From Pseudocercospora fijiensis CIRAD86 (taxonomy: Eukaryota > Ascomycota > Dothideomycetes > Mycosphaerellales > Mycosphaerellaceae): a stretch of 64,000 bases of DNA. How positions within the stretch are numbered: position 1 is the stretch's first letter; every line of letters starts with the position of its first letter. Location: positions 772,267 to 836,266 of the forward strand of contig NW_006921542.1 of assembly GCF_000340215.1 (NCBI RefSeq), read 5' to 3'. This document shows positions 19,424-41,449 of this stretch, piece after piece. A program made the position numbers and the translations under genes. The notes under the pieces are model-generated. The model ran no database searches, was not told the origin of the DNA, and saw only the letters and a program-made list of their open reading frames with translations.

Positions 19424-19466
19424 CCGTCTCTATATACCGGCTACGAGTACCGGCTATACCTCTAAA
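19424..19466. mobile_element. Left stump of hAT copy 2, with target duplication
   Basis: About 43 bp here match 21,909-21,957 of hAT copy 1 (CCTACTACCGTCTCTATA and CCGGCTACGAGT blocks). They are interrupted at 19,466 by the hAT terminal repeat and resume at 29,368. The 8 bp before the element (19,459-19,466, CCTCTAAA) match the 8 bp after it (29,368-29,375, CCTCTCAA) at 7 of 8 positions. Homology to copy 1 stops abruptly left of 19,424. Confidence 0.75.
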
Positions 19467-19600
19467 TAGACCCCGCAGTAGTTCGGGTTGGTTTAGTTTA
19501 GTTTGCTAAGCCGAAACTCTAGTTTGGTTTAGGTTGGTTTGCTAAGCAACTATATAAGTAGCTAGTTCGAACTATATAATTTATCGGTTTTTAAGAAGTG
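19467..19600 (+). repeat. Left terminal inverted repeat of hAT copy 1
   Basis: It begins TAGACCCCGCAGTAGTTCGG and continues with internal GGTTTAGTTTAGTTTGC and GGTTTAGGTTGGTTTGC subterminal repeats, whose complements (GCAAACCGAAC type) are at the right ends at about 29,340 and 43,580 and in the MITE at 48,583-48,928. Confidence 0.85.
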
Positions 19601-19628
19601 TACGAATATGTACGTAGCTTCAAGCAAG

Positions 19629-20545
19629 CCCTTTATAAGACTTAGCAGTATAGCCGGTAGCGTAGCCGGCATTTTTAGTCCTTAGTACTTATAGAATTTT
19701 CGAATCCTACTTAGGCTACGTAGTTGTATAAAGGTACTTATATAACCTTAAATCTATAGACAATTAGCTAAGGGCACTAACCAATTAAAAGCATATATAT
19801 ATATAAGGCATTATAGTTTAGTTCGGAAACTATACTCCTTAGGTATGAATTTTATCCTTTCGTTTACGGTTTAATTCCCTAACTGCTTAGTAGAATGTCT
19901 TTATCTAGATCTAGGTAGAACTTATCGATTTCCGTCGAAGCTCTCCTTAAGAAGTTCTAGCACTTTCCTACTAAACTATACTCTAATATTAAGTACTAGG
20001 ATAGCTCCTCCCTCGATATCGGTACTATATACGAAACAGCTATAAGGCAGCTCTATAGGGCGTTCTACTAGTTACTCGCTATACTACGGCCGAATGCTAG
20101 TTCGTTCCTTAGAACTCTAGGTTATTTAGTAGATATTAAGGATAGGGTAGGTAGTAACTTCGTATTGTATAAGGAAGTAGAGGCTACTATAGAGGAGTCC
20201 TTCAACCTATAGAAGATAGTAAAAGATATAGAGGTAACTACAGGTCTAGGTACCTAGTTGAATTTCTAGTAGGTAGAGTATAAGGATATTTAGTAGGAGT
20301 ATTAGGTAGAGTTGCGAAAGCAGGTATATAATATAGTCTAGAGAACAGGGATAATACCTATAACTATAAGTATTAGGTTCTTTAATCTTCCTCCTTTTTT
20401 CCTTATTTTCTTTTTATAAAAATCCAAACTAATACAAATTAACTAGAATATCTATCTTCTTTTAGTTCTTTATAAGACCTAGTAGCGTAGCCGGTAGCGT
20501 AGCCGGCAGCGTAGTCGGCCTTTTTACTCCTAAGCACTAACGGGT
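19629..20545. repeat. Direct repeats flanking the plus-strand ORF of the hAT
   Basis: A block with CTTTATAAGAC, then AGCCGGTAGCGTAGCCGGCA, then TTTTTA and AGYACTWA occurs at about 19,629-19,700 and again at about 20,468-20,545. The two copies bracket the plus-strand ORF and carry the GCCGGC motif otherwise found in introns. They may mark a captured cassette. Confidence 0.6.
19895..20350 (+). pseudogene. Unidentified plus-strand ORF in the hAT
   Basis: From ATG at 19,895 the plus strand reads as a single frame of about 150 codons whose stops are all TAG (Gln or Trp equivalents). Readable segments include NLSISVEALLKKF, LDIGTIYETAIRQLYRAFY and TLGYLVDIKDRVGSNFVLYK. The amphipathic, Leu/Lys/Glu-rich character suggests helices, but I do not recognise a family. 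It is convergent with the H3 gene (end at 20,745) and bracketed by direct repeats. It is missing from hAT copy 2. Confidence 0.5.
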
Positions 20546-20830
20546 TTTTCGAAGACTTCTATTCTATACGGCTAATAAAGTATACTATACTATATAGGTA
20601 TACTTAGAGAGTATTTAGAGCGCGGTATATAGCGCCGTATAACAGCGGCTTATTTCGTATATAGAAAAGCTTATAGACGATACTACGAATATCCTTCCTA
20701 CTAGTATATCTATCCTATCTAGCACTATCTCGAATATAGATATTCTAGCCTTTTAGAATCTGATCGAGTGCTTTAAAATCCTTATCTATAATCGTTATAC
20801 GCTTCGCGTAAATAGCTATAAGGTTGACCG

Positions 20831-20878
20831 CTGAAATAGTATTAGTATAGTCCGAAAAGAGGTAGAAGAGAAATATAT
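20831..20878 (-). other. Intron 2 of the H3 gene (48 nt, phase 1)
   Basis: The 5' end reads ATATAT, one RIP change (TpG to TpA) from GTATAT. The branch-point sequence TACTAATAC and 3' TTTCAG follow. Removing it joins FES to VNLIAIY and restores H3 alignment exactly. It has no GCCGGC array. Confidence 0.85.
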
Positions 20879-21061
20879 ATTCGAAGATACGAACTAGGTA
20901 GGGTTCTATAGCCTCTTAAAGGGCGCCTATCGCGGAGGCTTAGAAGCGAAGGTCCGTTCTATAATCCTAGGCAATTTCGCGAATAAGTCGTTAGAAAGGA
21001 GCTTTACGGATTAGGAGCTTAGAACTCTTCTAATACTGCCGAATCTTACGGAGGGCTACGG

Positions 21062-21152
21062 CTAAAGAAGGATTAGTAAAAAGACAGTAAGAATGCCGGC
21101 TACGCTGCCGGCTACGCTACCGGCTACGCTGCCGGCTATAAATAGAACTTAC
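21062..21152 (-). other. Intron 1 of the H3 gene with GCCGGC array (91 nt, phase 1)
   Basis: The 5' splice site is GTAAGT at 21,152 and the branch region is TTTTTACTAATCC, with 3' TTTAG (RIPed CAG) at 21,062. Between them lie four units of about 12 bp with alternating GCCGGC and ACCGGC cores (21,094-21,139). Splicing joins RLG-T to VALRKI in frame. Confidence 0.88.
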
Positions 21153-21964
21153 TTCCTAGGCGCTATCGACGCTTCGTACGATTGCTACTAGTAGTAGAAG
21201 CGCTAGTTGTCGTCTTACGTAGAGCCTTGCCCGCCGTTGTCTTACGCGGAGCCTTACTCGCGACGCCCTTTCTAGTACCGGAGCTAGCGGTAGTAGTAGT
21301 AGCCCTCTTATATTAATATACTATACTCGTTCTATTATTTCCGATCTTGTTACGACCCGTAGAAGTAGCAGGTCCCTTCTTACGAGGCGTCGTAACTTAG
21401 TTAAGTAGACTCGCTATTATAAAAGTCGTCGAATTAAGGAAAAAAGTGCGTTACGAAAGTATACGAAGGCGCGCGTAGAGCGAGGATATTGCGGAGGTAG
21501 TAGATATAGAGCGTAGAGGTATAGGTATCGATACGAAGGTTAAATATAGCGAGAGAGGTAGTATCGCGGTATCGCTAGGCAATAGAGTAAGCTTCGCGTA
21601 AGCCTATATTATAGTAACGTTAGAGTAAGGAAAGAAGGCAGGTACGGCTAAAAAAGGCGGGCATAGCTAAAAAAGGCAGGTACGGCAAACTTTGAAATAT
21701 AGCCGGTATATATAGCTAGTATAGTAATAGGCGAAAGCCTCCTTTTAATAAATAGCCGGCGTAATAATAGTATCCTACTATAGTATAGATATTCTTTAGT
21801 AATGCCTTTACTAGCTATAGTAATCTTATAAGTAACCTAGGCCTATTGCTAGTAAATATAAGAAATATTAGGTAGGCTATACTAAACAAGCTAGTTATTT
21901 AGTAGGAAAAGGCCTACTACCGTCTCTATATGCCGGCTACGAGTGCCGGCTATCGCTCTAAATT

Positions 21965-22687
21965 TAACTCCGCCCTATCTCGGAGGCTAAGGTACCGAGC
22001 GGAAACCCTATAGCTTATATTTACTCGGTTGTCGCGGAGCGCTTATAGGTAAGGTATTAGAAAAGAGTATAAAAAGTACGAGAAGAGTATCCTAGGATAT
22101 AGGTCGTAAGTGAATAAGAGTAGCACGCCTAGTTATTTATATAGTACGTTACTCTATACGACTAAGAGCCTATATTATCTTATACTTCGCTTATAAGACC
22201 TCGACTCTACTAGTATACTATCGATCTCCTCCTCGGTCGCTAATACGCTATCTTAATTCTTCTTCGAGTTGCCGGACTTAGTACGTATCTATAGCTATAT
22301 AATAGCGCTACGTATTATAGAGAATCAACTCCGCCGTATCTCGAAGGCTAAGGTACCGAGCGGAAATCCTATAGCTTATATTTACTCGGTTATCGCGGAG
22401 CGATTATAGGTAAGGTATTAGAAAAGAGTATAAAAAGTACGAGAAGAGCATCCTAGGATATAGGTCGTAAGTAAATAAGAGTAGTACGCCTAGTTATTTA
22501 TATAGTACGTTACTCTATATAACTAAGAGCCTATATTATCTTATGCTTCGCTTATAAGACCTCGACTCTACTAGTATACTATCGATCTCTTCCTCGGTCG
22601 CTAATACGCTATCTTAATTCTTCTTCGAGTTGCCGGACTTAGTACGTATCTATAGCTATACAATAGCGCTACGTATTATAGAGAATT
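21965..22687. repeat. Tandem duplication, two 362-bp units
   Basis: Unit 1 (21,965-22,326) and unit 2 (22,327-22,687) both begin AACTCCGCC and end near GCGCTACGTATTATAGAGAA, with high identity. hAT copy 2 has one such unit (from about 29,386). The unit holds the C-terminal coding region of the CENP-A-like H3 gene. As 362 is not a multiple of three, the extra unit cannot extend the frame. Confidence 0.88.
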
Positions 22688-23670
22688 TCTCGTTAAAGTT
22701 TCTCTCTCGTAGGCTTACTATCTACCTTATAGTATAGAGGATTAAAGTACTAATACTAAAGAATCTCCTTATAGTTAGGATACTAGGGCTCCTTAGGACC
22801 TTTATATTTTAGGTCTAAATAGAGACGTATTATAAACGTTCTATCGCCCTTTCGCTTACTATCCGCTAGGTCGCGATATACGAAGAAACTAATCTAAATG
22901 TAGCTCGTCTCTATAATAGCCGGGTAAATATAGAGCGCTAGGTTTCTACTTCGTACCTTAGATTTAGGGACGGCGCGGAGATAAAATTAGAAATATAGCT
23001 AGTACCTATAGCCGGTAAAAGGATGCGAAAATAGGCCTCCTCCTAGGTTAATCTAACGACTAAATACAATTTCTAACTAATCCGCTACAAACCGACGCCG
23101 AATTTTAGCTAGAAGCTGTATATCTTTATTTTAAAGAGTAACCCGCTTCGTATAGATAGCAAGTAGGTTTAAAAGCTTAAGCTCGGTTACGAGAAATGCC
23201 TCCGTAGCTTCCTAAAGAGTACTAATCGCCTTAGCCGTAAATCGTATACTAGACCGAAAATCTAATGTAATTTCTCGGACGAGTCGCTAGAAGGGAGTCT
23301 TAGGGATTAAAAGCTCGGTCTCTCTTTTGTTTTAGAAAAGCCGGATCTAGCGAAGGGTAATAGTACCTAGTTTAAAGCGCCGCTTCTTTATCGTCGAGTC
23401 CTACCTTATTCCCTTTCTTTTAATAGAAAGATAACTTTTCTACGCGATAGTCTTCGTCCGCCTACTCTTTTTAGCCTTCTCCTATCTATCTATAGCCTTC
23501 TTATTTTTCGGTACTGTTTTCCGAGGAACCCCCTTCCTTTGTATATACTACGGAGAGCCTTACTCTTCCGATATCTCGTTCTCGCTACGGTCTCCCTATA
23601 CTTAGCTTACTTTACTCTTACCCTTTAGCCTCTAAAGATATTTATCTACGCGTTTAGGCGACGAGGGCAT
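22316..23670 (-). pseudogene. Divergent, CENP-A-like histone H3 gene with long tail and C-terminal extension
   Basis: One minus-strand frame from ATG at 23,668-23,670 runs about 450 codons with only TAG/TAA stops. The first about 115 residues are a basic tail (MPSSPKRVDKYL at the start, KKAIDR, KKSRRTKTIA). The histone fold follows: RRFKLGTITLR, RETELLIPKTPF, RLVREITLDFRSSIRF, EATEAFLVTELKLLNLLAIY and TKRVTL-NKDIQLLAKIRRRF. These match H3 [50 protein letters not shown] and KDIQLARRL in order, with a two-residue insertion before ELLI. Divergence and tail length fit a CENP-A-type variant, but this is inference. After the fold come a probable intron with a CCGGCTA motif near 23,000 and an unfamiliar extension (KGDRTFIIRLYLDLKYKG, then a coiled-coil-like QLEEELRQRI). 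The second hAT copy has the same gene. Confidence 0.82.
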
Positions 23671-24007
23671 ATCGGTAGGACCTAGAAAATTAATAAGTAT
23701 ATAATCGTAAGGAGACATTAATACTTCTTGCCTTCTAGAACAAATAGTCTTCTATTAAACCGCCTTAGTAGGTTATCGTTAGATTCGAATAAAGGATAGT
23801 AGCTTAAGGAAGGGGAGGTAGCCGGCTTAGGAAGGCCCGAAGAGCCGAATCCTTAAGGTATATTTATCTTTAAGAATATAGGGAAAGGGAAGAAGGAGAG
23901 GAAGAGCGAATAGAGAATTAGAAATAGTCCGTAGGTAAGCGGGGTCGGTTGCTATAGCAACTAGTCTATTTAGGTCCTAGGAATTCGAAATACATTTCGG
24001 ATATATA

Positions 24008-24033
24008 CCGGCTATATATGCCGGCTATATTAC
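24008..24033 (-). other. 5' end of a probable 3'-terminal intron with CCGGCTA motif
   Basis: Just after the transposase C-terminal coding region, AAG is followed by GTAATA (5' splice-like, at 24,033) and two CCGGCTATA-type units. I could not fix the 3' splice site. Confidence 0.45.
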
Positions 24034-25377
24034 CTTATATATAAACGCTTCGTCTCCTTAAAGCTACTCTAAGCCTATATACGTTTCCGCTTCTCGACCT
24101 AGTATCGCCTTCTACCTCCGCCCTCCTTCTCTTCGTTATCGCTAATTAGGGTTTCGCTTAGACTAAATTTCGTATTCTCTTCGCGCTCCTAGGTTTCTTC
24201 GATCTTAAGGTTTTCTAATTCCTCGATTAACTCCTTTAGTATAATCTTTAGTAACCTACCTTAGCGATTCTAGTAGAGGAGATAGTATCGGAATACTATA
24301 ATAGATTCGAAGGTAGTAGGCGAGTATATTCGATTAAAGCGGCCCTAGTAACGAGCGATACTAAAAGACCTCTTATAGCCTATTCCTATACTCGGGATAG
24401 CGAGGACGTCCCGAGCGACCGACGCTATCGTTAGAAACTTAGGCTCTAACCGCTACTATATAGCGAGAATATCGTCTCCGAATTCGTCTAGAAGACCGGT
24501 AAGATCTAGAGATTATTAGCCCTCTTTCCGAGCCTACGGGTTTATACTTACTTACGCGCCGATAGAGATCGAACTCTTCTTTATTTACTTTAGTAGTTGC
24601 TTCCTCTTCTGCCTCTACTTCCTACCTACGAAATAGGTATAATATCGGAGCCTTCTAAACCTTCTTTTTCTTTATAGGAGCTATATTTAGACTAGTTTCT
24701 TTCCGACGCTCGTAGAATATCTTTTCTAGAATAGTCTAGTAATACTTCGGCTATACCTCGTCCGCCTTCTATTCTAGCCTCTACTAGTATATATCCTTTT
24801 CTACCGGGTTAAGCAAGTACGTAACGCTATAGATATCCCCGAACGACTTAAAGGTAGTACTATAATATTTATATAACTTAGTATAGGAGGTGTCTATAGC
24901 TTTCCTTATAGCTACTTTCTAGAGAACGCTCTTCTTAGCTAGCTTAGCTACGGTTTCCTCGAGCTCGTTAAAGAGCTAGTTATAGTACGTAAAGACAAGG
25001 TAGATCGTCGGTCCTCGGGTTCTTCTAATCGTAGTAGTAACCTTCGCGTAATACTTACTAATATCGACGAGATACTCTACTTAGCGCTATTCGGCGGCGG
25101 TAAGGCCGAGCTACTTAATACCCTCGGAACTCTAATAGATCTCGAGAGCGGTACGTAAAGTATATCCTCTCGTAACTATATAGAAAGTCGAATCGAACTA
25201 GGTCTTAATATCTTAGGTAAAACGGAGTAGGCGCTAAGGAGGCCGCTTTTGCTATCGCTTATTCTATACGATATTCTAGGTATTAGTTTTAGGGCGCTCG
25301 ATTAGGTTCTTTTAAATAGCCTCGAATCGGTTATATCTCTATAAGCTCGAGTTCGTATATATTGCTAGACGACGAAG

Positions 25378-25446
25378 CTAGAGAAAAAGAGTTAGAACTA
25401 TACTAGGTTACCGGCTATAGGTGCCGGCTACGGATAAAAGTTATAC
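25378..25446 (-). other. Transposase intron with GCCGGC motif (69 nt, phase 0)
   Basis: AAG followed by GTATAA at 25,446, two units (GTAGCCGGCACC, ATAGCCGGTAACC), branch GTTCTAACTC and 3' TCTCTAG (RIPed CAG) at 25,378. Splicing joins LVLYK to LRRLAIY, the hAT KLRKLV motif. The same intron is in copy 2 at about 32,386-32,454 with a changed array. Confidence 0.85.
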
Positions 25447-26401
25447 CTTATATAAAACGAGAGCGAGGCTCTCTACCTTATCCCGTCTTATTACTATAAT
25501 AAGTTTCTCGACTTTCGACTTTGCTTTATCCTTATCTAGGATCTTCTATTAGTCGTCGTTTAATAGTGCAATTTTAAGCGTTTTAAAGAGGGCTCGGATC
25601 GCGATTTAAACTATATAAGCGAGGTAGGGAAACTTCTATAGGGATGCAACTAGTAACGACGTCGGCTCCGATTTAATAGGGCTAGGGCTATTAATAGGCT
25701 CCTCTTTATCGTTATTATCGTACGTATTGTCGTACGTATCCGGAATCGTAGCGAGCTTAATATTCGGAAGATTAAGCTAGATTATAGACCTTATAATCTC
25801 CTCTACGTACTCGACCCTATCGATATAATTAGTAATTTTAAAGATATATACGAGTAAATTGTATATATAACGCCTTATATAATATTCGATTATTACTAGC
25901 GTTATCGGTAGTAATCGAGATTAGTTTCGTTATTACGCTAACCCTATCTATTACCGTATAGATAAGCTTCGCTATATCCTTACTAGTATAGGAACCTAGA
26001 ATTTTAGGGAATCCGATTATAAGTTCCTAGAGTTTCTAATCCGAATTAATAAAGTATAGTATAATCGAGAGGAAGGAGGCTCTTATAGTCCGGCTTAACC
26101 AGCTATCGATAGTAATAGCTACTTAGCGAGTATTACGGAGGATCTCCTGAATATCGTCTAACGTAGCCTCTTTATTTATTTCGAATATAATACCCTAGGT
26201 TGTCGCGCCGAGAAATAGGGGAGGGTAGTTTATAAGATATAGGTATGTCTTCTACACAGACTCCCTTTCGTAGAAGTCTTCCGGAAGACCGTTTATAGCT
26301 AGTATTTCGTTTGCTAGTTGCTTAAAGTCTTCGGGGGAGAAATCGGTAGCCTTTAATCCTAGAGCTTCCTTAAGCGTAGCCTATAATAATTAGCTAGACC
26401 T

Positions 26402-26493
26402 CTACGGTTAATTTAAGTAGCCGGAATCTATAGCCGGAATCTATAGCCGGTAGCTATAGCCGGCAGCTATAGCCGGCATTTTAGAAGACGTAC
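26402..26493 (-). other. Transposase intron with five-unit GCCGGC array (92 nt, phase 0)
   Basis: 5' GTACGT at 26,493, five 13-bp units with GCCGGC or CCGG cores separated by TATAGCT or TATAGAT, branch-like TTAAATTAACC and 3' CCGTAG at 26,402. Splicing joins IAFQKE to RSSQLLQATL in frame. Copy 2 has only two degraded units at the same place (about 33,410-33,432). Confidence 0.85.
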
Positions 26494-27264
26494 CTCTTTC
26501 TAGAACGCTATATCTATATTAACTCTCCTCTCTCCTTAAGATTCCCGACACTGTTTAGAATAGAGATAGTTCGTAGGCGATAAGTTCCTATCCCCTAGTT
26601 TCGGGTATTTCAAGATTAAACCGTAGAAGTTATAGACAATTACTAGTTAACCTTTAAGTCGAGAAGTCGTATAACGGTATAATACCCCCTCTATAAAGAA
26701 CTTCTAGAATGTATCCGTTCGCTCCTTACTCCCCTATCGTATCGAGTACTTCCGGAGTTTACACTCCTTTAAACGTAAGTATAAAGGGAACTATATCTTA
26801 TAGACCTATTAATTAAACTGCTCTATATACTCGGGTTTCTAAAGATACGCCTAGCTAGCCTTTTCGAAGATTTCCGGGTTAATACTCGATATTCTTATAT
26901 CTCCGAACAACCTTCTACTTAGACTCCGTAAAGGTAAGGACTAGGTAGTAGTACCCTATAATAAATTCCTACTACTAGGATTCGGAGAGGATAAATCTAG
27001 CCCTAATCGTCGTCTAGGACTCGATAGGCTCGAAGGTAAGTATACGACCTCCTCTCGACGTTGTCGCAATCTCGCTCGTATACTAGACTGTTTCGACTAT
27101 CGTCTCGTTATTATTCTTCCTAGTATAGCGCCTAGTATATATACAATGTCGGTCGGTATGTTTTAAGGTTTCGTACGGTAAGGTAAGGACTTAGGAGTAG
27201 TAGATATATACTAGTAGCTATAGGGAAACACCCTTTCTTTTATAGTATCGTATCGTTAGGAACA

Positions 27265-27400
27265 GCTAGGTAGTAAATAGCTAGCTACCTTTTTTTTTGT
27301 TTCCTAGCTACCTAACTACTAGATTTTTTTTTCCTAGCTACCTTAGCTAGCCTAACTACTAGAATTTCTTTCCTAGCTACCCTAACTACCTAAACTTTGC
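27265..27400. repeat. Short tandem repeats with T-runs, three units
   Basis: TTTCCTAGCTACC is repeated three times, with CTAACTACTAGA spacers and T-runs of up to nine. The spacing is about 35-50 bp. It lies between ORF-A and the transposase start. Copy 2 retains a shorter version at about 41,385-41,430. Confidence 0.7.
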
Positions 27401-27823
27401 CTTCTATATAGCGGCTCTCTCCTACTAACGGAACCGAGCTACTATACCTAACGAATCTAAGCTCGTTTTTAGTCTTAATCTATCCTCTTTCGGTATAAGA
27501 CACTCGACAAGTAAATGCTTAGGCCGAGTCTAACTACGAAACCTAAGACTAACTAATAGCTCTATTAACTAATCCTAATCCTCGAACTCCTTCCGCTTCT
27601 TAGTAAAGACCTTAAAGAGCGCTCGAGCTTCGTTAGGTACCTACGGAGTAGTCGAGATAAAGCCGTATCGCTAAAATAGGTAATCCTTCGGAGGCTTATA
27701 TAGAGATTTAGAGAATTCTAACGCTAACCTATCCTACTAGTAGCTTAGATTCCGGATATAAGCCCTCTCTGCCGTAGTAAAGATTTTATATAGTAGTAGT
27801 ACTCTGCCTTCGAGAAACGCTTT

Positions 27824-27871
27824 CTATTTAACTATTAGTATCTGCCGGCTACGAACGCCGGCTATATATAC
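27824..27871 (-). other. ORF-A intron 2 with GCCGGC motif (48 nt, phase 0)
   Basis: 5' GTATAT at 27,871, two units (ATAGCCGGCGTTC, GTAGCCGGCAG), branch TACTAATAG and 3' AAATAG at 27,824. It joins VIILYS to KAFLEG. Copy 2 has the same intron, nearly unchanged, near 41,880. Confidence 0.83.
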
Positions 27872-28370
27872 CGAGTATAGAATAATTACCTATACCCCTT
27901 CCTCCTTTAGTAACACTTCTGCCGTCCCTAGATACCTAGCCCCGATCGCATTAATCGTAAGCTACTTTGCCTTTATAGACGTAAAGGCTTCGCTCTAATA
28001 CTAATAAAGAAACTTCTACTCTATATCGAGGATATAAAGACGACTAGTCTCGATTCTAATCCTTACTAGCTTTTCGTAGTAGCTTTAACTATAATTTTCT
28101 AGATTAATAGGACTTATACCTTAGCCCTTTACTAGTATCTCGTCTCTTTAACTATACTCGATCTACTCCTAGCGCTTATCGTCTATAGCGTTAGGCCCTA
28201 AGACTATACCTATTACTAGATCGACGTATAGTATCTCCTCGCTTTTTTTAGTTCCTTTATTCGTAGTATTAAGCTCTATCGCGGCATCCTAAACTCTAGC
28301 ATTATTGTTCTCGGCTATCTAAATATCTCCGTTACTATCGGTCGTATCGATAGAGGTAGCGGCTATAGGT

Positions 28371-28451
28371 CTAAATGCTATTAGTTAACGTATTAAAGAA
28401 AAATATGCCGGCTATAGCTACTAGCTACGGCCGCTAGCTAGATTGACTTAC
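28371..28451 (-). other. ORF-A intron 1 with GCCGGC motif (81 nt)
   Basis: 5' GTAAGT at 28,451, a degenerate array ending ATAGCCGGCATA, branch TTAACTAATAG and 3' CATTTAG at 28,371. It joins KVLVA to PIAATS in frame. The matching intron of copy 2 (about 42,440-42,500) holds a longer array. Confidence 0.82.
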
Positions 28452-28904
28452 GCTACTAGAACTTTACGCTCGAAAACTAGCCGCAATTCTTTCCTCCTCT
28501 TAGCCTTCTCTTAGGTTGTCTTCTTATTCTAACCTTTACTTTTTTCTATAGGCGCTAGCTATCGATAGAATGCCTTATTCCGCGCCTTTCTTCTCTTATC
28601 CTTAGCTCTTTTATTCTTATCTATCTTCTCCTTTCTCTCGCGGTCTCGTACGGAATTCTTCTTCGTAGAGTACTCCTCTTTAGTCTTACGCTTTTTAGTT
28701 AGAGGCTTAGGTAAAACAAACTCGCGGTCTTTAGTTCTATTTTCTATTTAGCGCGCGGCGCGCTTCCCTCTTACTATTATAAGGGAAAGGGGTAGGGGCG
28801 TAGCGTATAGTAGTTATTGTCGGTATAGGTATAGAGGAAGAAGTTAAAAGTATAAGAATATCGCGAAGCCCTAATTGTTGCCGCCTACGTAACGTTATAT
28901 AGGT

Positions 28905-29220
28905 AAGCTTTCGTAACTACGGCAACTACGCCCCGGCAATAGCAACTACGCCCTAGTAACGGCAACTACGCCCTAGCAACGGCAACTACGCCCTAGCAAC
29001 GGTAATAAAGCGTAGTAAATACAACCTAGTAACTATTATAGCCGGCAATCGTAGCCGGTAGTCGAATAAGAGTATCCTAGTAGCAAAACCACGCCCTAGT
29101 AACGGTAACTACGCCCTAGCAACGGCAACTACGCCCTAGTAACGGCAAAAGAGCGTAGTAAATATAATAGAGTTACTATTATAGCCGGTAATCGTAGCCG
29201 GTAGTCGAATAAGAGTATCC
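28905..29220. repeat. 20-bp minisatellite and larger duplication in the hAT 5' region
   Basis: Units like CGGCAACTACGCCCTAGCAA recur head to tail at about 28,919-29,010 and 29,095-29,150. A larger block starting GCGTAGTAAAT and containing GCCGG(C/T)AATCGTAGCCGG is duplicated at 29,011 and 29,152. Copy 2 has a shorter, more degenerate version at about 42,980-43,100. Confidence 0.8.
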
Positions 29221-29239
29221 TTATAGTAAAACTAATATA

Positions 29240-29367
29240 GTCTCTAGTTTAAACTAGGAATCTATATAGTTCGAAGAAACCAAACCGGAACTAGGGAGCT
29301 AGTTCGCCGCTAAGAAACCAAACTATATACGTTTAGTAGTTCGGAAACCGAACTACTACGGGGTCTA
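29240..29367 (-). repeat. Right terminal inverted repeat of hAT copy 1
   Basis: It ends GAACTACTACGGGGTCTA, the complement of the left end, preceded by subterminal AAACCGGAACTAGGG and GTTTAGTAGTTCGG blocks. The duplicated target CCTCTCAA follows at 29,368-29,375. Confidence 0.88.
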
Positions 29368-29378
29368 CCTCTCAATTT

Positions 29379-30682
29379 AACTCCGCCCTATCTTAAAGGC
29401 TAAGGTACCGTATAGAACCCCTATATCTTATATTTACTAAGATATTACGGAGCGCTTATAGGTAAGATATTAAAAAAGTATATAAAAAGGTACGAGAAGA
29501 GTATCCTAGGATATAGGTCGTAATAGAATAAGAGTAGTACGCCTAGGTATTTATATACTACGTTACTCTAAACGACGAGGAGCCTATACTATCTCGCTCT
29601 TCGCTTATAAGACTATTTAATAAACGATCGGGTAAGTATAGCGAGAAGGTAGAGGTAGTCTCTTAGGACGAGGCTTCTTTACGTCTCTTATATGCGGTAT
29701 ACGCTCTTCTTCGTTAGACTTATAAGTAGAGTCGTCGCTCAACTATACTAATATACTATCGATCTCCTCCTTAGGCGCCTAAGCTATACGAGTAGCTACG
29801 AGCGATAATATCTAGATCGTATAATAGTCTCTTTTCTTCTTTAGTTATATCTACTTCTACCTCTTAGCGTAGTTAAACTAGAAATACTATCGAGTAAAGC
29901 CGGGATATAGAAAGAAACTAGTCTAAATATAGCTCGTCTCCGTAATAACCGAGCAAATATAAGGCGCTAAGTTTCTACTTCGTACCTTAGAATTAGAAAC
30001 AGCGTAGAGATAAAATTAGAAATATATCCGGTATCTATAGCTAGTAAAAGGATACGAAAATAGGCCTCTTTCTAGGTTAATCTAACGACTAAATACAAAT
30101 CCTAATTAATCCGCTATAAACCGACGCCGAATCTAAGCTAGAAGCTATATATCTTTATTTTAAAGAGTAGCCCGCTTTTTATAGATAGTAAGGAGGTTAG
30201 AAAGCTTAAACTTAGTTATAAGAAATGCCTCCGTAGCTTTTTAAAGAGCACTAATCGCCTTAGCCGTAAATTATATACTAGACCTGAAATCTAATATAAT
30301 TTCTTAGACGAGTCGCTAGAAGGATGTCTTAGGGATTAAAAGCTAGGTCCCTCTTTTATCTTAGAATAGCCGGATCTTATAAAGGGTAATAGTACCTAGT
30401 TTAAAGCGCCGCTTCTTTATCGTCGAGACCTACCTTTTATATTTCTTTTTTATAAAAGAATAACTATTCTTTATAATAGCCTTCGTCCGTCTACTTTTTA
30501 GCTACTTTAGCGTTCTTCTATCTATCTAAAGCCTTCTTATTTTGCGGTACTATTTTCTAAGAGACCCTATTCCTTTATATATACTATAAATAGTCTTTGT
30601 CTTTCTATAGTTAGCTTACCTTACCCTAACCCTATTCTAAGTTCTAAATGTATCTTTATATACGTTTAGGCGATAACGGTAT
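29379..30682 (-). pseudogene. CENP-A-like histone H3 gene, copy 2
   Basis: Second copy of the gene at 22,316-23,670, with the same histone-fold blocks in the same frame (the region 30,120-30,440 aligns with 23,090-23,410). The ATG has become ATA at 30,680-30,682 by RIP, so the start codon itself is lost. Only one C-terminal 362-bp unit is present, which is probably the ancestral form. Confidence 0.75.
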
Positions 30683-31069
30683 ATCGCTAAGACCTAGGAA
30701 ACTAATAAGCCTATAATCGTAAAGAGATATTTATACTTCTTACCTACTAGATTAAATAGTCTTTTATTAACCCGTCTTAGTAGGTCCTCGTTAGATTCGT
30801 AATTAGGATAGTCGCTAGAAGAAGGGAAGGTAGCTAACTTAGTAAGGCCGTAAGAGCTAGATCTTTAAGGTATATTTGTCTTTTAGAATATAGGGAAAGG
30901 GAAAAAGAAAAGGAAGAGCAAATAGAGGTTTATAAATACTTAGTAGGTAAGCGGGATAGGTTACTATAGCTACTAGTCTATTTAGGAGTTCGAAATATAT
31001 TAGGAATATATACCGGCTATATATACTAGCTATATACGGCGGCTATATTAACTTCTATATAAACACTTC

Positions 31070-33719
31070 GTCTTCTAAAAGCTACTCTAAGCCTATATAC
31101 GCTTCCGCTTCTCGACCTAGTATTCTCTTCTACCTCCGCCCTTCGCCTCTTTATTATCGCTTATAAGGGTTTCGCTTAGACTAAATTTCGCATTCTCTCT
31201 ACGCTACTAGGTTCCCTCGATCTTAAGGTTTGTAAATTCCTCGATTAAGTCCTTTAGTATAATCTTTAGTATCTTATCTTAGCGACTCTAGTAGAGGAGG
31301 AAGTATCGGAATACTATAATAGATTCGAAGGTAGTAAGCGACTATATTCGATTAAAGTAGCCCTAGTAACGAGCGATACTAAAAGACCTCTTATAGCCTA
31401 TATCTACGCTTACTATAGCGAGGACGTCCTAAGTAACCGACGCTATCGTTAGAAACTTAGGCTCTAACCGCTACTATATAGCGAGAATATCGTTTCTAAA
31501 ATCGTCTAGAAAACCGAGATTATTAGCCCTCTTTCCGAGCCTATAAGTTTAGTACTTACTTATACGCCGATAGAGATCGAACTCTTTTTAATTTACTTTA
31601 GTAGTTACTTCCTCTTCTACCTTTACTTTCTATCTACGAAATAGGTAGAATATCGGAGCCTTCGTAGCCTTCTTTTTCTTTATACGAGCTGTATCTAGAT
31701 TACTTTCTTTTTAACGCTTATAGAATATCCTTTCTAGAATAGTTTAGTAATACTTAGGCGATTCCTCGTCCCTTTTCTATTCCCGCTTCTACTAGTATAT
31801 ATCCTTTTCTACTAGGTTTAGTAAGTATATAACGCTATAGAGATTCCCGAACGACTTGAAGGTAGTACTATAATACTTGTATAACTTAGTGTAGAAGGTA
31901 ACTATAGCTTTCGTTATAGCTACTTTCTAGAGGACGATCTTCTTAGCTAGATTAGCTACGGTTTCGTTAAGCTCGTTAAAAAGCTAGTTATAGTACGTAA
32001 AGATAAGGTAGATTATCGGTCCTCGGATTATTCTAATCGTAGCAGTAACCTTCGCGTAATACTTACTAATATCGAGGAGATACTCTACTTAGCGCTATTC
32101 GGCGGTAGTAAGCTAGAGCTACTTAATACCCTTAGAACTCTAATAGATCTCGAGAGCGGTACGTAAAGTATATCCCCTTATAACTATATAGAAAGTCGAA
32201 TCGAACTAGGTCTTTATATCTTAGGTAAAATAGAGTAGGCGCTAAGGAGGCTGCTTTTACTATCGCCTATTCTATATAATAATCTAGGTATCGGTTTTAG
32301 GGCGCTCGATAAGGTTCTTTTAAATAGCGTCGAATCGGTTATATCTCTATAAGCTCGAGTTTATATAGATTACTAGACGACGAAGCTAGAGAAGAAGAGT
32401 TAGAACTATACTAAATTGCTAGCTATAGCTACCGGCTACGGATAAAAGTTATACCTTATATAAAACGAGAGCGAGGCTCTCTACCTTATCTAGTCTTATA
32501 ACCGTACTAAGTTTCTTAACTTTAAGTTTACTTTATCCTTATTTAGGATCTTCTATTAGTTGTCGTTTAATAGTATAATTCTAAGCGTCCTAAAGAGGGC
32601 TTAAATCGCGATATAAACTATATAAGCGAGTTAGGGAAACTTCTCTAGAATTATAACTAGTAACGTCGGCTCCGATTTAATAGGGCTAGGGCTATTACTA
32701 AGCTCCTCTTTATCTTAATTATCGTACGTACCCGGAATCGTAGCGGGCTTAATATTTAAAAGATTAAGCTAGATTATAGACCTTATAATCTCGTCTATAT
32801 ACTCGACCCTATCGATACTATTAGTAATTTTAAAGACAAATATAAGTAAACAGTATATATAACGCCTTATATAATATTTAATTATTACTAGCGTTCTCTA
32901 TAGTAATCGACATTAGTTTTATAGTTACGCTAACCCTATCTATTACTATATAGATTAGCTTCGCTATATCCTAACTAGTATATAAATCTAGAACTTTAGG
33001 GAATCTAATTATAAGTTCCTAGAGTTTCTAATCCGAATTAAGTAAGTATAGTATAATCGAGAGGAAGGAGGCTCCGATAGTCTAGCTTAACTAGCTATCG
33101 ATAGTAATAGCTACTCGGCGAGTATTACGGAGGATCTCCTAAATTTCGTCTAACGTAGCCTTTTTATTCTTTTTAAATATAGTACGCTAGGTAATTGCGC
33201 TAAGATATAGGAGGAGGTAGTTTATACGATATAGATATATCTTCTATATAGACTCCCTTTCGTAGAAGTCTTCCGGAAAACCGTTTATAGCTAGTATTTC
33301 GTTTACTAGTTACTTAACATCTTCTAGAGAGAAACCGGTAGCCTTTAATCCTTAAGCTGCCTTTAGCGTAGCCTATAATAATTAGCTATATTTATAGGAT
33401 AAATCAAAGTAGCCGATAGCTATAGTCGGCATTTTAGAAGACGTACCTCTTTCTAGAACGCTATATCTATATTAACCCTCCTCTCTCCTTAAGATTCCCG
33501 ATACTATCTAGAATAGAGATAGTTAGTAGGCGATAAATTCGTATCCCCTATCTTTAGGTATTTTATAATTAAACCGTAGAAGTTATAGACAATTCCTAGT
33601 TAACCTTTAAGTCGAGAAGTCGTATAACGGTATAATATCCTCTCTATAAAGAACTTCTAGAATATATCTATTCGATCGTTACTACCTTATCGGATCGAGT
33701 ACTTCCTTAGTTTATACTC
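31070..33719 (-). pseudogene. hAT transposase, copy 2, 3' part (rest at 40,862-41,220)
   Basis: It aligns with 24,060-26,755 of copy 1, including core and dimerisation blocks and the introns near 32,386-32,454 and 33,370-33,460. The gene is interrupted after 33,719 by Ty3 element B, and the N-terminal part resumes at 40,862. RIP stops lie in both parts. Confidence 0.75.
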
Positions 33720-33919
33720 TATAAGAAGGGTTATATTAGCAGGTAGATAGGGTGGTAGTAGGTACAAGTAGTATTCGATAAGGATCTAGGAGGAGAGGGA
33801 GGAAGGTAGGAGAGTTAGCCTATTGCTAAGCGCTAAGCCCTACCTAAGGCATTAAGACTCTAACTTTACTCGAGCCTAGTTACATACTAAATACGTATAA
33901 CCTCTTTAGTCCTAATATA
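33720..33919 (-). repeat. 3' LTR of Ty3 element B
   Basis: On the plus strand it starts TATAAGAAGGG (RIPed TGTAAG) and ends CCTAATATA (RIPed TACA). It is nearly identical to 40,662-40,861, and similar to the 198-bp LTR at 58,568-58,765, which retains TGTA...TACA ends. Confidence 0.9.
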
Positions 33920-35110
33920 CGCTTCCCTTCTAAAGGCCGCGCCCTCGTAGCCGGTCTATATTCTAATCTTATCCTCTATTACTACTAACTTAGTAGGTCT
34001 AATAAGCTACTTAGCCCGCGCTAAATTAAATACGCAACTACCTAAGTATGTAACTATGTTAAACCTTACCTCTAATATAATATAATATTCAACTCTAACT
34101 ACGCTATCCTTATATATAATAAAGTAATATATAATTACGAGAATTAAGGACTATCGACTAATTATAATACGAGCGCGTCTTCCCTACTATAATAGGTAGG
34201 CGTACGAGGTATTACAGCACTGCCTCCGTTCTAAGTAATGTCGTTCCGAGTTCTTTGCGTCTACTCTAAAAGACCTAGAAATTTCCGCTCTAAGGGATTG
34301 TTCTTATTATTACGAGGGCTATTATTGTTCGTAGTTTCGCTAGCCCTAATTAGTTAGGTTTGGCAGTCTTTAATTGTTAATCTTATCTTATCTTTTCAAA
34401 AACACAGTTCGTCTAGTTTCTATAGGTAAAGGCTATTATAAGTACAATAGTTAAGGTTCGCCTCGCTTAAAGGGTCGGAAAGATCGAGGAGTAACCTATT
34501 ATACGCAAGATCGACCCTAGCTAGCTTAGCTCTATAGTTTTGCCCTTAGTTAGTCTATTGACCTAATCTTTTAAGCGGCTCTTAGTGTTTTAACTTAGCC
34601 TTAAAGTTTTAATTAAACCTTTAATATAGCTATTCTTTTAGCTTAACCGGTATACTCTAGCTCGTAGTATAGGTAAGGTTAGTAATAGTAGCGAGTAGGT
34701 AGTATTAACAATAGCGGCGCTAGCCGTCTTAGCGCTAACTTTACCTTGCTTCTAATTTCCTTCTTTAACTAATAATAACTTAGTAACACCGTTACTAATA
34801 TAGCCGTATCTTTCCTTCTTTAAGTAGTAATACACTCCGTAATACCGTTACTAATATAGCCGCGCCGGCTACCGGTACACTACTAGCTCGTAGCGCGATA
34901 CTATTATCTTTATTACCGTTATTCGTACGCGCGCGCGCGTATCGCCCTTATCGATCGCTTAGGCCTTAGGGCCTCGATAGAATAAAGGGACAAGAGAGGG
35001 CGCTAAGAGAAGGGTCTTATAGGGTGCGCTAGTAAAGAGGTAGATTCTATAGTAGTATAGTCTTATTGTCCTTTGTTGCTAACAATTACTTGCCTCTAAT
35101 TAGTTAGCTA
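33920..35110. other. Non-coding 3' region of element B with alternating CG run
   Basis: This long stretch between integrase end and 3' LTR has no recognised gene. It contains an alternating CGCGCGCGCG run near 34,930. The counterpart in element C is 58,766-59,900, with the same run near 59,725, so both belong to the family. Confidence 0.6.
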
Positions 35111-38100
35111 ATAGTACCCCGGGGGTAGTATTAATCCTAGGCCTTTCTAGTAACATTATAGGCCCTTAGTCTTCTTCTTATTCTTTACGCTAGTCCGATA
35201 CTTATCTAACAACTTAGTTATGTCCTTAAACGAGTCTTTAGCTTCCTACGAGTCCTATTTAGGTAAATAGCCTTGCTATCTTAGGAGGTATTCCTTCTTG
35301 CCTTGCCTAGTCCGATACTTTAGGATACGTTCTATAGACTATAGCTCTTTACTATTAGCTAGGACTTCTTCTAACTTAGCAGGCGCTTTATCGCCTTCGC
35401 GTTAATAGTATAGTTTAAGGAGGGATATATAGAAGGTGTTATAGATAGTGTAATAGGGTAGAAGCTATAACTAATAGGCCTATACGGAGGAGCCCTTAAC
35501 TTCTCGGATACGGAATAGGCTAATATATCTCGGTACGATCTTAGGCCTTGTTTTACTATTAGGTAATAGGTGTTTGCGGATGCGGAGGTTCTTCGTACTA
35601 AGTATAACTATATCGCCTTGTTTGAAGGTTATTAGTATATAACGCTTATCGTAGTAGGCCTTTTAGTAGGCCTATGCCCTTGCTAGTTTATTAGCTATTT
35701 TAGCGTAAATTTCTCGCATCTTTTAAATCCTCTTAATAGCTGCTAGTGTCTTAGGTACTTAACGCGCTTCTATTTCCTTACGCTCGGCCTCGAGCGAGGT
35801 AAATAGATCTTATAGCAAGGCAGCGTTTTAGCCTATTATAGCTATATACGGTAAAACCTTAGTTAACGAGTGTACGCTATTATTGTATACGAATTCTATA
35901 GGCTATAGGAGATTAACCTAATCCTCGGGGTTGTTATTAATATAGCTGCGTAGGTACTACTATAGGGTAGCATTCTGCCTCTCTATTTAACCGTTAGTCT
36001 ATAGATAGAAGGCTATTAATAGCCGATGCTTTAGTCTTAGTTGTAGGTATATTTCGCTCTAATAGTGCGATGTTAGTATCGATCTACGATTAGATACTAT
36101 CCCCTTAGGGGTTCCCTAATAGGTATAGAAGATATTAGTCTATAGCGCCTCTGCTATATTAATAGCAGTCCAATCCTTACGCGCCGGGATATATCGAGCG
36201 CCTTTAGTAAATCGATGTACTATAATAAGGATAGTATTATATACGTCCTTACTACCTCTACGCTTAGCAGGCGGGAGGCCTATAATAAAGTCTATTATAA
36301 GCTCTGTAAATAGCTTCTTTAGAATAGGAAGCGAAGACAGCTCGCCGAATAGTAAGTGCTTCGGTGCTTTAACTCGCTAGTATACTATATATATCTATAT
36401 ATACTTCTTTATATGCCGCTTACTATTTAGCTAGTAGTATATGCGCGATAGTAACTCGTACGCCCTCTCTATACTATAGTAACTAGCGAGCTTACTATTA
36501 TAGTGCCTCTTTAAAAGCTCTTGTCTAATCGATTGTTTAGCGGGGATATAGTATCTGCCCTTAAACCTTAAGTAACCCTTATCGTCGATCGACTAACTAT
36601 TACTCTTACTAGATCGAGTCGCCCGTCTACTTACAAGCCTATTAATACGCTCGATAGCAAAGGCGTCCCTCTACTAAGCGCGTAACAGCTTATCTATAAA
36701 CGATTAACTATCCCTATTCGTAAGGTTATTTAATAGCACCCTTGCTATCGAACGAGGTACGCATTATATATATCTAATAGTACTAGCAGCCGGAACTACT
36801 ATAACCTCTTCTATAGTGCTATCGCTATATTAGCTATTACTACAGATAGCAATATCTTTAATCGAGTTATTATAGCTCGAGCGATCTACGTCCTTTCTTT
36901 TAACGTATACTAGAAGAACGACAACTCCGCTATAGTATTTGTTACTACCGCGAGGTCCGGAAGTCCGCTTATCCTACGCTTGCTTATTAACAATACGGGC
37001 TATAGTAATCTTATACTATAGGGTTAGAAACAATAAATTAATAGATTACTAAGTCTCGCTATCGTAATTAGGTCGCCTCGATAGGCTATCGGTAGGGTTA
37101 CTTACGCCTAGCCGGTATAATATATTAAAATCGAACCCGGCGAGGTAGACGGCCTATCTAGCCTATCGACCTATAACCCTAGTAACCTTAGTAATGCTAC
37201 GGAGGTTGTTATAGTCTATATAGACCTATATCGTATATTAAGCCCTATCGAGGTAGTGCCTCTAATACTTAAAGGCCTCGATAATAGCTAGTAACTCTTA
37301 CTCGTAGGTCTTATAGCGACGCTCTATATCGATTATCTTTCGTAAAAAGAAGGCAAACGGGTGCTAACAGGTATTATTAGCCTATTGTAACATAATAGCT
37401 AATATAGCGAACTATAAAGCGTTAGTCTTAATACGGATCTGCTTACTTAGTATAAAATAGTATAATAAGGGGACTTTAGTAAAGCGTTGCTTTAAGCCGT
37501 TAAAAGCGGCTTGTACCTTATTAGTCTATTTAAACTCTCTAGTCGGGTTAGCCTTAGTTTTAGTAAGCTTAGTTAGTAGTATTACGTACCTTAAGTAACC
37601 CTCGATAAATCGACGATAGAAATTAGTAAAGCCGAGGAATAACTAAAGTTCTTTAATACTAGTAGGTGTTAGCTACTTAGTAATAGTCTTAATCCGATTA
37701 GGATTAGCCTTAATACCCTTAGTTAATACGAGGAAGCTAAGGAAGGACACCTCCTTAGTAGTAAAGGTATATTTAGAAGGCTTACAATATAGCCTATAGG
37801 CCCTTAGGCGATCGAGCACCTTGCGGACTATAGCCTAGTACTCCGCAATGTTAGGTAAGTATATATAAACTAGGATGTTATCTCGGTAAACTATATAGAG
37901 GTAGTCTAATAGGCCTAATAGGGCCCGATTAATATAGGACTAGAAGGTTATAGGGGCATTAGCTAGCCTAAATAGTATAACTAAGTACTCGAAATAGCTA
38001 TAACGAGTACGGAAGGCCGTCTTCTATTCGTCGCCCTTGCGAATACAAATGCGGTAATAGGCGTCCTTAATGTCTAATATAGTATAGTAGTAAGCACTAG

Positions 38101-39060
38101 AAAGGCGATCGAGGGTCTTATTAATAAGCGGAAGTAGATAGCGGTCTTTAATAGTAATAGCATTAAGCCTACGATAATCGATATATAGGCGTAGGCTACT
38201 ATCCTTCTTTAGTACAAACAGGATAGGTGCACTAGTAGGGCTATTACTATACCGTATCCGGCTATTTGCTAGGTTTTTATCTAGGTACTTACGTAATATA
38301 GCAAGCTCTCGTTCACTAAGGTTATAGAGAGGACTAAAAAGGACCTCTTTGCCCTCTATAATATTAATCTTATAATCCGTCTCTTTAAATATAGGCAATG
38401 TCGATACTAGGTAGTGTTTAAATACATTAATATAGGTCTCTCGAATAGGCTCTAGTATACGAGCAAGCTAATTAGGGTCTATGCTATTAGGGGGCATAGG
38501 TTTATCGTTATTACTACCGAGTAGGTTAGTAGTCGGGTCCGCTAGGGTTAGGTTGCTAATAAATAGGACCCTAATATCGTTAGGGCACTCGCTAATATTA
38601 ATATGTTTAATATCCTCTTTCCTAGCGATTCTAAATCGCTATTACTAACTGCCTAAGTCTATAGCTATAGCGTAGTACTTAAGGATAGGGTTGGTAATAA
38701 TAATAGTAGCTCCCCTATATAGGTAGTCTATATCTACTATGTAGGTAGTAAAGTCTAGTAGGCGCTTATTGCCGAGGTCGTCTTTTAGAACTATAGGGAC
38801 ATAGTAGGCCCTATAAGTTAAGTGCCGAGCGTTATTAAACTAAGCAAGGGTTAGTAGGTTAGTCCTAGGTAATTGTCGAAGGTCTAATTACTTAGCTAGG
38901 CGATAGCTAATAAGGGCACTAACTAAATTTCCTAGATCTAGTATAACCTTAGTCTTATAATTAGTGCTATACGAGTCCGATACGAGATAGGTACGTATAA
39001 TAGCTAGTACAATGTCGATAGTCTTACGCCGTATAAGGCTAACAGTTAGTATAGCGCTTA
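35110..39060 (-). pseudogene. Ty3 Pol of element B (protease, RT, RNase H, integrase), fossil
   Basis: RT is clear at 38,024-38,398 ([38 protein letters not shown]). The active-site strand is at about 37,860-37,890 (YRDNILVYI, from a Y/F-x-DD-IL motif). RNase H lies at about 37.0-37.5 kb and integrase with a zinc-binding N-terminus at about 36.9-35.5 kb. The C-terminus reads KYRTSVKNKKKTKGL just before TAA near 35.15 kb. All functions are lost to stops. In the family, Pol makes cDNA and integrates it, often towards heterochromatin. Confidence 0.85.
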
Positions 39061-39099
39061 TTCTTTTTTCGAAGGTTAGCCTATAGGGGTAGCGTTAGC

Positions 39100-40640: not shown

Positions 40641-40661
40641 TAAAGGGTAGATCGAATACTG

Positions 40662-40861
40662 TATAAGAAGGGTTATATTAGCAGGTAGATAGGGTAGTAG
40701 TAGGTACAAGTAGTATTCGATAAGGATCTAGAAGGAGAGGGAGGAAGGTAGGAGAGTTAGCCTATTGCTAAGCGCTAAGCCTTGCCTAAGGCATTAAGAC
40801 TCTAACTTCACTCGAGCCTAGTTATATACTAATCACGTATAACCTCTTTAGTCCTAATATA
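40662..40861 (-). repeat. 5' LTR of Ty3 element B
   Basis: Pairs with 33,720-33,919 at the same 200-bp length. Gag begins on its left side, which makes it the upstream LTR. The primer-binding site next to it (about 40,640-40,661) is too RIPed to assign a tRNA. Confidence 0.9.
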
Positions 40862-41449
40862 CTCCTTTAAGTATAAGTATAGAGGGAACAATATCTTATA
40901 GACCTATTAATTTTAATTAAACTACTCGGTATACTCGGGTTTCTAGAGATACGCCTAGCTCGCCTTTTCGAATATATTCGGATTAATACTCGATATTCTT
41001 ATATCTCCGAATAACCTTCTACTTATACTCTAAAAAGGGAAGAACTAAAAAGTAGTACCCTATAACGAATTTCTACTACTAGTATTCGGAGAGGATAAAT
41101 CTACCCCTAATCGTCGTCTAGTAATCGATAGGCTCGAAAGCGAGTATATACCTTCGTCCTAACATCGTCGTAATCTAGTTCGTATACTAGACTATTTCGA
41201 CTATTGTCTCGTCGTTACTCTTCCTAGTATAGCGCCTAGTATCTATATAATCTCGGTCGGTATATTTGAAAGTTTTATATAGTAAGGTAAGGAGTAGTAG
41301 ATATATACAACTAGCTAAAGGGAGATACTCTTTCTTTTATCGTATTATATCGGTAGGAATAGCTAGATAGTAACTAGCTAGCTATCTTTTTTTTGTATCC
41401 TAGCTACCCTAGCTATCCTAACTACCCGAATTTTGCCTTCTATATAGCG

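What the first reader, a model, noticed from the sequence alone, without database searches (positions are those of the whole stretch)
20745..21417. A histone H3-like gene inside a hAT transposon
Seen: the spliced reading follows histone H3 from the tail (SKAPRKTTAGK) through VALRKIRQY, LLIRKAPF, RLIREIA, DYRTDLRF and IAIYAKRITI. The five core stop codons (21,030, 20,991, 20,967, 20,940, 20,916) all fall on H3 glutamines and both introns fall where alignment needs them. Known: TAG/TAA from CAG/CAA is the RIP signature. Inference: the element once carried a working H3 variant, which could have altered chromatin at its own insertions or at the host's. I know of no hAT with such cargo.
Basis: partly seen in the sequence, partly recalled or inferred. 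Interest (0 to 1): 0.96.

Follow-up and report, generated by a model that had tools for sequence, protein, structure and literature searches.

The report
Known histone-carrying hAT transposon, RIP-broken
[quoted passage not shown] such elements are already described in print, but one of the two genes keeps two likely introns, so that gene was likely taken from chromosomal DNA and not, as published, from a messenger RNA.

Summary
A spliced reading of window 20,745-21,417 (minus strand) is a histone H3 (Pfam Histone 97 bits with stops left as X), and all five core stops fall on H3 glutamines. It lies inside a complete 9,901-bp hAT element (19,467-29,367) with 20-bp terminal inverted repeats, an 8-bp target duplication (7 of 8 here; 8 of 8 in 6 of 9 other copies with both ends) and hAT-transposase homology. 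A second, intronless H3-like gene sits in the same element at 23,098-23,469, and a third in a diverged relative into which the element is inserted.

It is not new: Dhillon et al. 2019 (PMC6710886) describe this kind of element in P. fijiensis (784 H3-like copies in 471 elements), and Manning et al. 2013 a hAT with an H3-like gene in Pyrenophora. The genome here fits P. fijiensis.

One thing differs from print. The '16-amino-acid insertion' of one copy reads as a 48-nt intron, and the same gene keeps a 91-nt intron one codon from the host H3's second intron. That argues against 'transcript or retrocopy' capture for this copy. Signs of past selection on the cargo are modest for copy A and weak for copy B; a chromatin function is untested.

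The parts
19467..29367 (-). Complete hAT element, 9,901 bp; the recognisable genes read on the minus strand
   Evidence: 22 of 29 other copies align up to a left boundary at about 19467, with unrelated flanks; inverted terminal repeats at both ends
19467..19486 (+). Left terminal inverted repeat TAGACCCCGCAGTAGTTCGG
29348..29367 (+). Right terminal inverted repeat CCGAACTACTACGGGGTCTA
19459..19466 (+). Target-site duplication, left copy CCTCTAAA
   Evidence: matches the right flank at 7 of 8
29368..29375 (+). Target-site duplication, right copy CCTCTCAA
20745..21417 (-). H3-A: histone H3-like gene with three exons (21417-21153, 21061-20879, 20830-20745), true start codon not identified, terminal TAG 20747-20745
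21062..21152 (-). H3-A intron 1, 91 nt, GTAAGT..TACTAAT..TTTAG; contains a short GTAGCCGGCAGC-type repeat; one codon from the host H3's second intron
20831..20878 (-). H3-A intron 2, 48 nt; taken to be the published '16-aa insertion'; donor G+1 and G+5 are A in most or many copies, in a TpG context
23098..23469 (-). H3-B: second, intronless H3-like gene, with two extra residues near the end of the alpha-N helix (helix name recalled)
25895..26167 (-). Part of the hAT transposase (catalytic-core region, by recalled anatomy)
   Evidence: 2 of 6 frames taken from domain-bearing loci of the same genome (L040, L042) hit it by tblastn, E 1e-7 and 1e-6
24354..24449 (-). Probable remnant of the hAT dimerisation domain (weak)
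   Evidence: tblastn E 0.5 and 1.6, collinear; PF05699 15.8 bits, E 0.012, below the 21.4 cut-off
21966..22686 (.). 361-bp unit, two tandem copies (21966-22325, 22327-22686), 96% identical
30130..30447 (-). Third H3-like sequence, B type, in the diverged relative into which the element is inserted
   Evidence: Pfam Histone 1.9e-14 and 1.2e-16
29369..43603 (-). Right-hand part of that diverged relative (29369-33719 and 40858-43603), interrupted by an insert with 207-bp direct terminal repeats (33714-40862)

Best explanation
Window 19,467-29,367 is a 9.9-kb hAT DNA transposon, with terminal inverted repeats and a near-perfect 8-bp target duplication, that holds remnants of a transposase and two broken histone H3-like genes; [quoted passage not shown] It is taken to be a copy of the element published for Pseudocercospora fijiensis (species inferred, published consensus not compared). 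Shown: the H3 homology, the ends, the target duplications, the transposase homology, intron signals and lengths in 30 copies, and stops in 30 of 30 H3-A copies. Inferred: capture from DNA; one capture followed by doubling inside the element (A and B share non-RIP changes, but the evidence is mixed); loss of introns in B; RIP as the cause of the stops; possible past activity of the A protein. Untested: any effect on chromatin.
For: Ends and target duplication: (7 of 8 bp here; among 20 other copies looked at, both ends were found in 9, and 6 of those 9 have identical 8-bp flanks). Transposase: (E 1e-7, 2 of 6 queries), with a weak dimerisation-domain remnant. H3. Copies: of 772 first-look histone candidates 150 were scored; 148 bear stops, and the two without are the host's intact H3 and its CENP-A. 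Of 460 DNA candidates 40 were scored and all match H3-A. Introns; splicing restores G-T-V-A-L-R and F-E-S-V-N-L and raises the Pfam score from 68 to 97 bits. Host H3 introns lie in codons R8 and G44. RIP: codon 21038 is CAG in 16, TAG in 13 and AAG in 1 of 30 copies, 20762 is CAG in 6 and TAG in 24; 157 of 184 polymorphic columns are transitions only, 63 of them in CpA/TpG context. Prior description. Species: 73.9 Mb with the intact H3 on contig C6 and a largest listed contig, C1, of 11.88 Mb, against 74 Mb, scaffold 6 and 11.8 Mb in print.
Against: DUF659 (PF04937) and an above-threshold dimerisation domain were not found in this copy, although Dhillon et al. report DUF659 for the family. Three of the 9 two-ended copies lack a matching 8-bp flank. 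Dhillon et al. concluded that a transcript was captured, from exon junctions; that fits the intronless H3-B. Intron 1 of H3-A is 3 nt off the host intron, so an independent gain is possible. A strict splice pattern also turns up twice by chance on the other strand of the element, and intron 2 of the window copy does not meet it because its donor is mutated. No RNA evidence was available. 27 of 184 polymorphic columns include a transversion, and 50 of the 157 transition columns are in CpG context, which ordinary decay of methylated CpG would also give.
Confidence: 0.82

Rival explanations
1. Published reading: the hAT captured an H3 transcript or retrocopy; the 16-aa insertion in one copy is a mutation that arose before amplification.
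For: H3-B runs through the host's second exon junction without an intron; Dhillon et al. recovered exon-exon junctions.
Against: H3-A has a 91-nt block with GTAAGT/TACTAAT/TTTAG within one codon of the host's second intron, and the '16 aa' are 48 nt with donor, branch and acceptor; removal of both restores the H3 reading.
Confidence: 0.15
2. The H3-like genes are long-lived working genes of this hAT lineage, kept by selection because their histone changed the chromatin of the element or its host, before RIP killed them.
For: Transversions favour third codon positions: A vs B 27 of 174 (positions 1+2) against 25 of 87 (position 3), p=0.010; host vs A 23 of 174 against 21 of 87, p=0.022; host vs B3 28 of 174 against 23 of 87, p=0.036 (uncorrected). 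Splice-competent structure. A second fungus has a hAT with mostly intact H3-like genes and ESTs for them.
Against: Host vs B, B2 and B4 give p=0.24, 0.10 and 0.18, and the six comparisons within B types are not significant. Between the two neighbouring element copies the 300-bp bin that holds most of H3-B (23156-23455) has 14 transversions, more than several bins further on. Of 30 H3-A copies none is free of stops; of 150 scored histone matches only the host's H3 and CENP-A are (622 candidates unscored).
Confidence: 0.3
3. The cargo is a centromeric H3 (CENP-A type) and not an H3.
For: H3-B has two extra residues and CENP-A/CSE4-named proteins are among its 65 hits; one of the 120 listed H3-A hits is named CSE4.
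Against: The host CENP-A is a separate gene without stops (L057). In a 22-row tree A and B lie outside the CENP-A group (98/98), on long branches that the program warns about. Spliced A aligns with the host H3 without gaps from residue 37 to 123.
Confidence: 0.04

Closest known systems
hAT element with histone H3-like sequences of Pseudocercospora fijiensis (Dhillon et al. 2019, PMC6710886; text parts 1-5 of 7 read, which by the outline leaves back matter and references)
   Same: 9.5-9.9 kb, 20-bp TIR, 8-bp TSD, hAT transposase, two H3-like copies differing by 16 aa, hundreds of copies, RIP stops, intact host H3 on scaffold 6
   Different: Here the 16-aa block is read as a 48-nt intron and a second intron is found in the same copy, so DNA capture is favoured for it; a weak dimerisation-domain remnant, reported there as not identified, is seen here; DUF659, reported there, is not found in this copy
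hAT-H3L transduplication of Pyrenophora tritici-repentis (Manning et al. 2013, PMC3538342; passages read)
   Same: hAT with an H3-like gene between TIRs, amplified
   Different: 5.6 and 2.3 kb, 26 copies, 23 apparently intact (count from Dhillon et al.), ESTs found; Dhillon et al. found no similarity between the elements
Repeat family R25 of Stagonospora nodorum (Hane and Oliver, PMC3017866; passages read)
   Same: RIP-degraded repeat with weak DNA-transposon and histone H3 homology
   Different: Not identified there as hAT; re-classified by the authors as of presumably endogenous-gene origin

Membership tests
hAT superfamily | 8-bp target-site duplication | tested here: met
   7 of 8 in the window; identical in 6 of 9 other copies with both ends found, of 20 looked at
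hAT superfamily | Short terminal inverted repeats | tested here: met
   20-bp repeats at 19467 and 29367
hAT superfamily | hAT transposase | tested here: met
   26167-25895 matches two hAT transposases of the same genome, E 1e-7 and 1e-6
hAT superfamily | C-terminal dimerisation domain (PF05699) | tested here: inconclusive
   15.8 bits, E 0.012, below cut-off; collinear weak tblastn match
P. fijiensis hAT with H3 (Dhillon 2019) | Length 9.5-9.9 kb, two H3-like copies differing by 16 aa, 20-bp TIR, 8-bp TSD, RIP-type stops | tested here: met
   9,901 bp; H3-A and H3-B; 48-nt block in A only
P. fijiensis hAT with H3 (Dhillon 2019) | DUF659 domain (a hAT domain is reported in 277 of 471 elements) | tested here: inconclusive
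   PF04937 not found in this copy's X-marked translations or at its place in the genome scan. The copy is heavily mutated, 41% of published elements lack a detected hAT domain, and no other full copy was scanned
P. fijiensis hAT with H3 (Dhillon 2019) | Direct sequence match to the published consensus | not tested
Histone H3 | Core-histone profile and H3 sequence | tested here: met
   PF00125 97.3 bits for spliced A, 81.5 for B; 52% identity to the host H3 for each, stops counted as mismatches
CENP-A | Clustering with centromeric H3 | tested here: not met
   Outside the CENP-A group, with a long-branch warning

The most novel reading that the evidence does not exclude
The hAT lineage made its own spliced H3 variant, taken once from chromosomal DNA and then kept and doubled as an element gene; this transposon-borne histone altered nucleosomes so that the element could escape or delay heterochromatin and RIP, until RIP won.
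Probability: 0.15. Interest if true: 0.75.

Novelty: already known. Interest (0 to 1): 0.3.

Why it matters
The element itself is known. What the session adds is a correction: one of the two H3 copies still has introns, one of them next to a host intron, so this copy was likely taken up as DNA and not as RNA. That bears on how fungal DNA transposons acquire host genes. The transversion test gives a RIP-free way to ask whether such cargo was ever under selection.

Tried and rejected
DUF659 and dimerisation-domain scans of the own genome: 21 and 47 matches, none inside the window. Pfam scans of X-translated frames of 18.0-32.6 kb and 24.3-29.3 kb gave only histone. Two protein searches for intact relatives: H3-A (6,178 proteins at E <= 0.001, best 120 listed) gave proteins with a histone domain at 37-65% identity in those 120; H3-B (65 proteins) at 35-57%; nothing in either list stood out as a closer relative, and the tool shows no genomic context. 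Frames of 26.4-28.9 kb showed no gene that I could recognise by eye (no search beyond Pfam), although 27.36-28.26 kb is the least diverged part between the two copies. A CENP-A origin was rejected. Shared non-RIP changes of A and B (14 seen, 4.2 expected at positions 1+2) favour a common origin, but the four-way split with CENP-A is mixed: at positions 1+2, 9 for A with B against 4 and 3; at position 3, 1 against 6 and 4. For the B group I used 10 copies (window, L002 and 8 others); five further held loci of that type (L004-L008) were left out. An intron at host position R8 was looked for by eye in the A tail and not found. Paper searches gave the two hAT-H3 papers; of the other listed papers I looked into three for histone passages: one reports an H3-like repeat family in Stagonospora nodorum, one lists a histone H3 gene near a Copia element of M. 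fijiensis, and one showed nothing on this in the 12 of 15 passages displayed; the rest were seen as listings only.

Full report
What is there. The window is C11:772,267-836,266 of a 73.9-Mb, 30-contig assembly. Apart from a stretch at 14.5-17.8 kb of higher GC, it has no open frame of 150 aa or more, and from about 19 kb on it holds nested repeats. At about 19,467, 22 of 29 other copies of the region start to match the window, with unrelated flanks, nearly all at TAGACCCCG[C/T]AGTAGTTCGG or a form a few bases off; the inverted form ends at 29,367. The element is therefore 9,901 bp. Its flanks are CCTCTAAA and CCTCTCAA, 7 of 8 equal. Of 20 other copies for which the right end was fetched at an estimated place, both ends were found in 9; six have identical 8-bp flanks and three do not.

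The element is inserted in a diverged relative. The right-hand part of that relative runs from 29,369 to 43,603, 84-86% identical to the element over its aligned pieces, ends in the same kind of terminal repeat (18 of 20 letters), and is interrupted at 33,714-40,862 by an insert with 207-bp direct terminal repeats. The relative carries a third H3-like sequence at 30,130-30,447. Its left part, upstream of 19,467, resembles the element over only 57 bp.

The hAT identity. Of six open frames taken from hAT-domain and DUF659 loci of the same genome, two hit the element by tblastn at 26,167-25,895 on the minus strand, E 1e-7 and 1e-6. A weak, collinear match to the C-terminal dimerisation domain lies at 24,449-24,354 (E 0.5 and 1.6; PF05699 15.8 bits, below cut-off). 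DUF659 was not found in this copy.

The H3 genes. Exons 21417-21153, 21061-20879 and 20830-20745 give, with stops as X, a protein that matches Pfam Histone at 97.3 bits; the unspliced frame of exons 2 and 3 gives 68.3 bits. The five core stops align with Q55, Q68, Q76, Q85 and Q93 of the host H3, while the one at 21165 falls on Tyr41 and those at 21399 and 21315 in the diverged tail. In 30 copies (the window's and 29 others, of the 40 scored) intron 1 is always 91 nt and intron 2 always 48 nt. The +1 G of intron 2 survives in 6 of 30 and the +5 G in 13 of 30, the rest being A; both follow a T, the context that RIP attacks on this strand (recalled). The 30 copies carry 9 to 12 stops each, the terminal one counted. 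H3-B (23,098-23,469) is intronless, has two extra residues before helix 1, and matches Pfam Histone at 81.5 bits.

RIP. Two stop positions are still polymorphic between CAG and TAG among copies (21038: 16 CAG, 13 TAG, 1 AAG; 20762: 6 CAG, 24 TAG). Of 184 polymorphic columns, 157 are transitions only and 27 include a transversion. Of the 157, 63 are in CpA/TpG context, 50 in CpG context and 44 in others, so the RIP signal among these copies is clear but not pure.

What is known. A literature search found the element at once. Dhillon et al. 2019 report for P. fijiensis 784 H3-like copies in 471 hAT elements, full length 9.5-9.9 kb, 20-bp TIR, 8-bp TSD, two copies in full-length elements that differ by a 16-aa insertion, the intact H3 on scaffold 6, and RIP in all others; five related species have the event too. 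Manning et al. 2013 describe a hAT with an H3-like gene in Pyrenophora and already raise altered chromatin. Hane and Oliver report an H3-like RIP-degraded repeat in Stagonospora nodorum. I file the element under the published family; it was not compared with the published consensus, and the family's reported DUF659 domain was not found in this mutated copy.

What differs from the published account. Dhillon et al. infer capture of a transcript or retrocopy because they see exon junctions and no introns, and regard the 16 aa as a mutation. For H3-A I read this otherwise: the 16 aa are a 48-nt intron in codon 106, and another intron of 91 nt sits in codon 45, one codon from the host's second intron in codon 44. 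The simplest account is capture of a genomic H3 gene with at least this intron (shifted by one codon), gain of the second intron, and an intronless sister copy, H3-B. Independent gain of both introns is not excluded. As a control on the splice signals, a strict donor-branch-acceptor pattern occurs once on the element's gene strand, exactly at intron 1, and twice on the other strand by chance. The figures and supplement of that paper were not available.

Was the cargo ever a working gene? RIP makes only transitions (recalled), so I counted purine/pyrimidine changes in 87 aligned codons (30 A, 10 B, 2 B2, 5 B3 and 1 B4 copies, one host gene). A vs B: 27 of 174 at positions 1+2 and 25 of 87 at position 3 (p=0.010); A vs B2, B3, B4 p=0.012, 0.006, 0.017. 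Host vs A: 23 of 174 and 21 of 87 (p=0.022). Host vs B, B2, B3, B4: p=0.24, 0.10, 0.036, 0.18. The six comparisons within B types: none significant. The p-values are uncorrected, the tests share data, and the host's own conserved branch adds to the host comparisons. Between the two neighbouring element copies the bin holding most of H3-B is no less diverged than its surroundings. So past constraint is plausible for A, weak for B, and function is not shown. In a 22-row protein tree A and B are long branches outside both the H3 rows and the CENP-A group.

Verdict. The useful remainder is the intron finding, which would change the published capture route for one of the two copies.

Noticed in passing
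window 33714-40862 and 58570-63998: An insert with 207-bp direct terminal repeats (96%) splits the diverged hAT copy; a stretch 87% identical to most of it starts at 58570 and runs to the window end. It looks like an LTR-type element; not analysed further.
   Followed up: partly
window 21966-22686: A 361-bp unit occurs twice in tandem in this element; the alignments suggest one unit in copy L010, two in L015 and three in L012.
   Followed up: partly
window 19665, 20502, 21095-21136, 21932-21950, 26459-26477, 27844-27862: GCCGGC-centred short repeats are scattered through the element (17 GCCGGC sites), and one run lies inside intron 1 of H3-A.
   Followed up: partly
window 27356-28256: The least diverged part between the two neighbouring hAT copies (14 transversions in about 880 aligned sites); no gene recognised.
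   Followed up: partly
window 14547-17819: Island of mostly 52-56% GC with the only open frames of 150 aa or more in the window, probably host genes.
   Followed up: no
L057 (G000:C5:606300-607100): Stop-free centromeric H3 (CENP-A) gene pieces of the host.
   Followed up: partly
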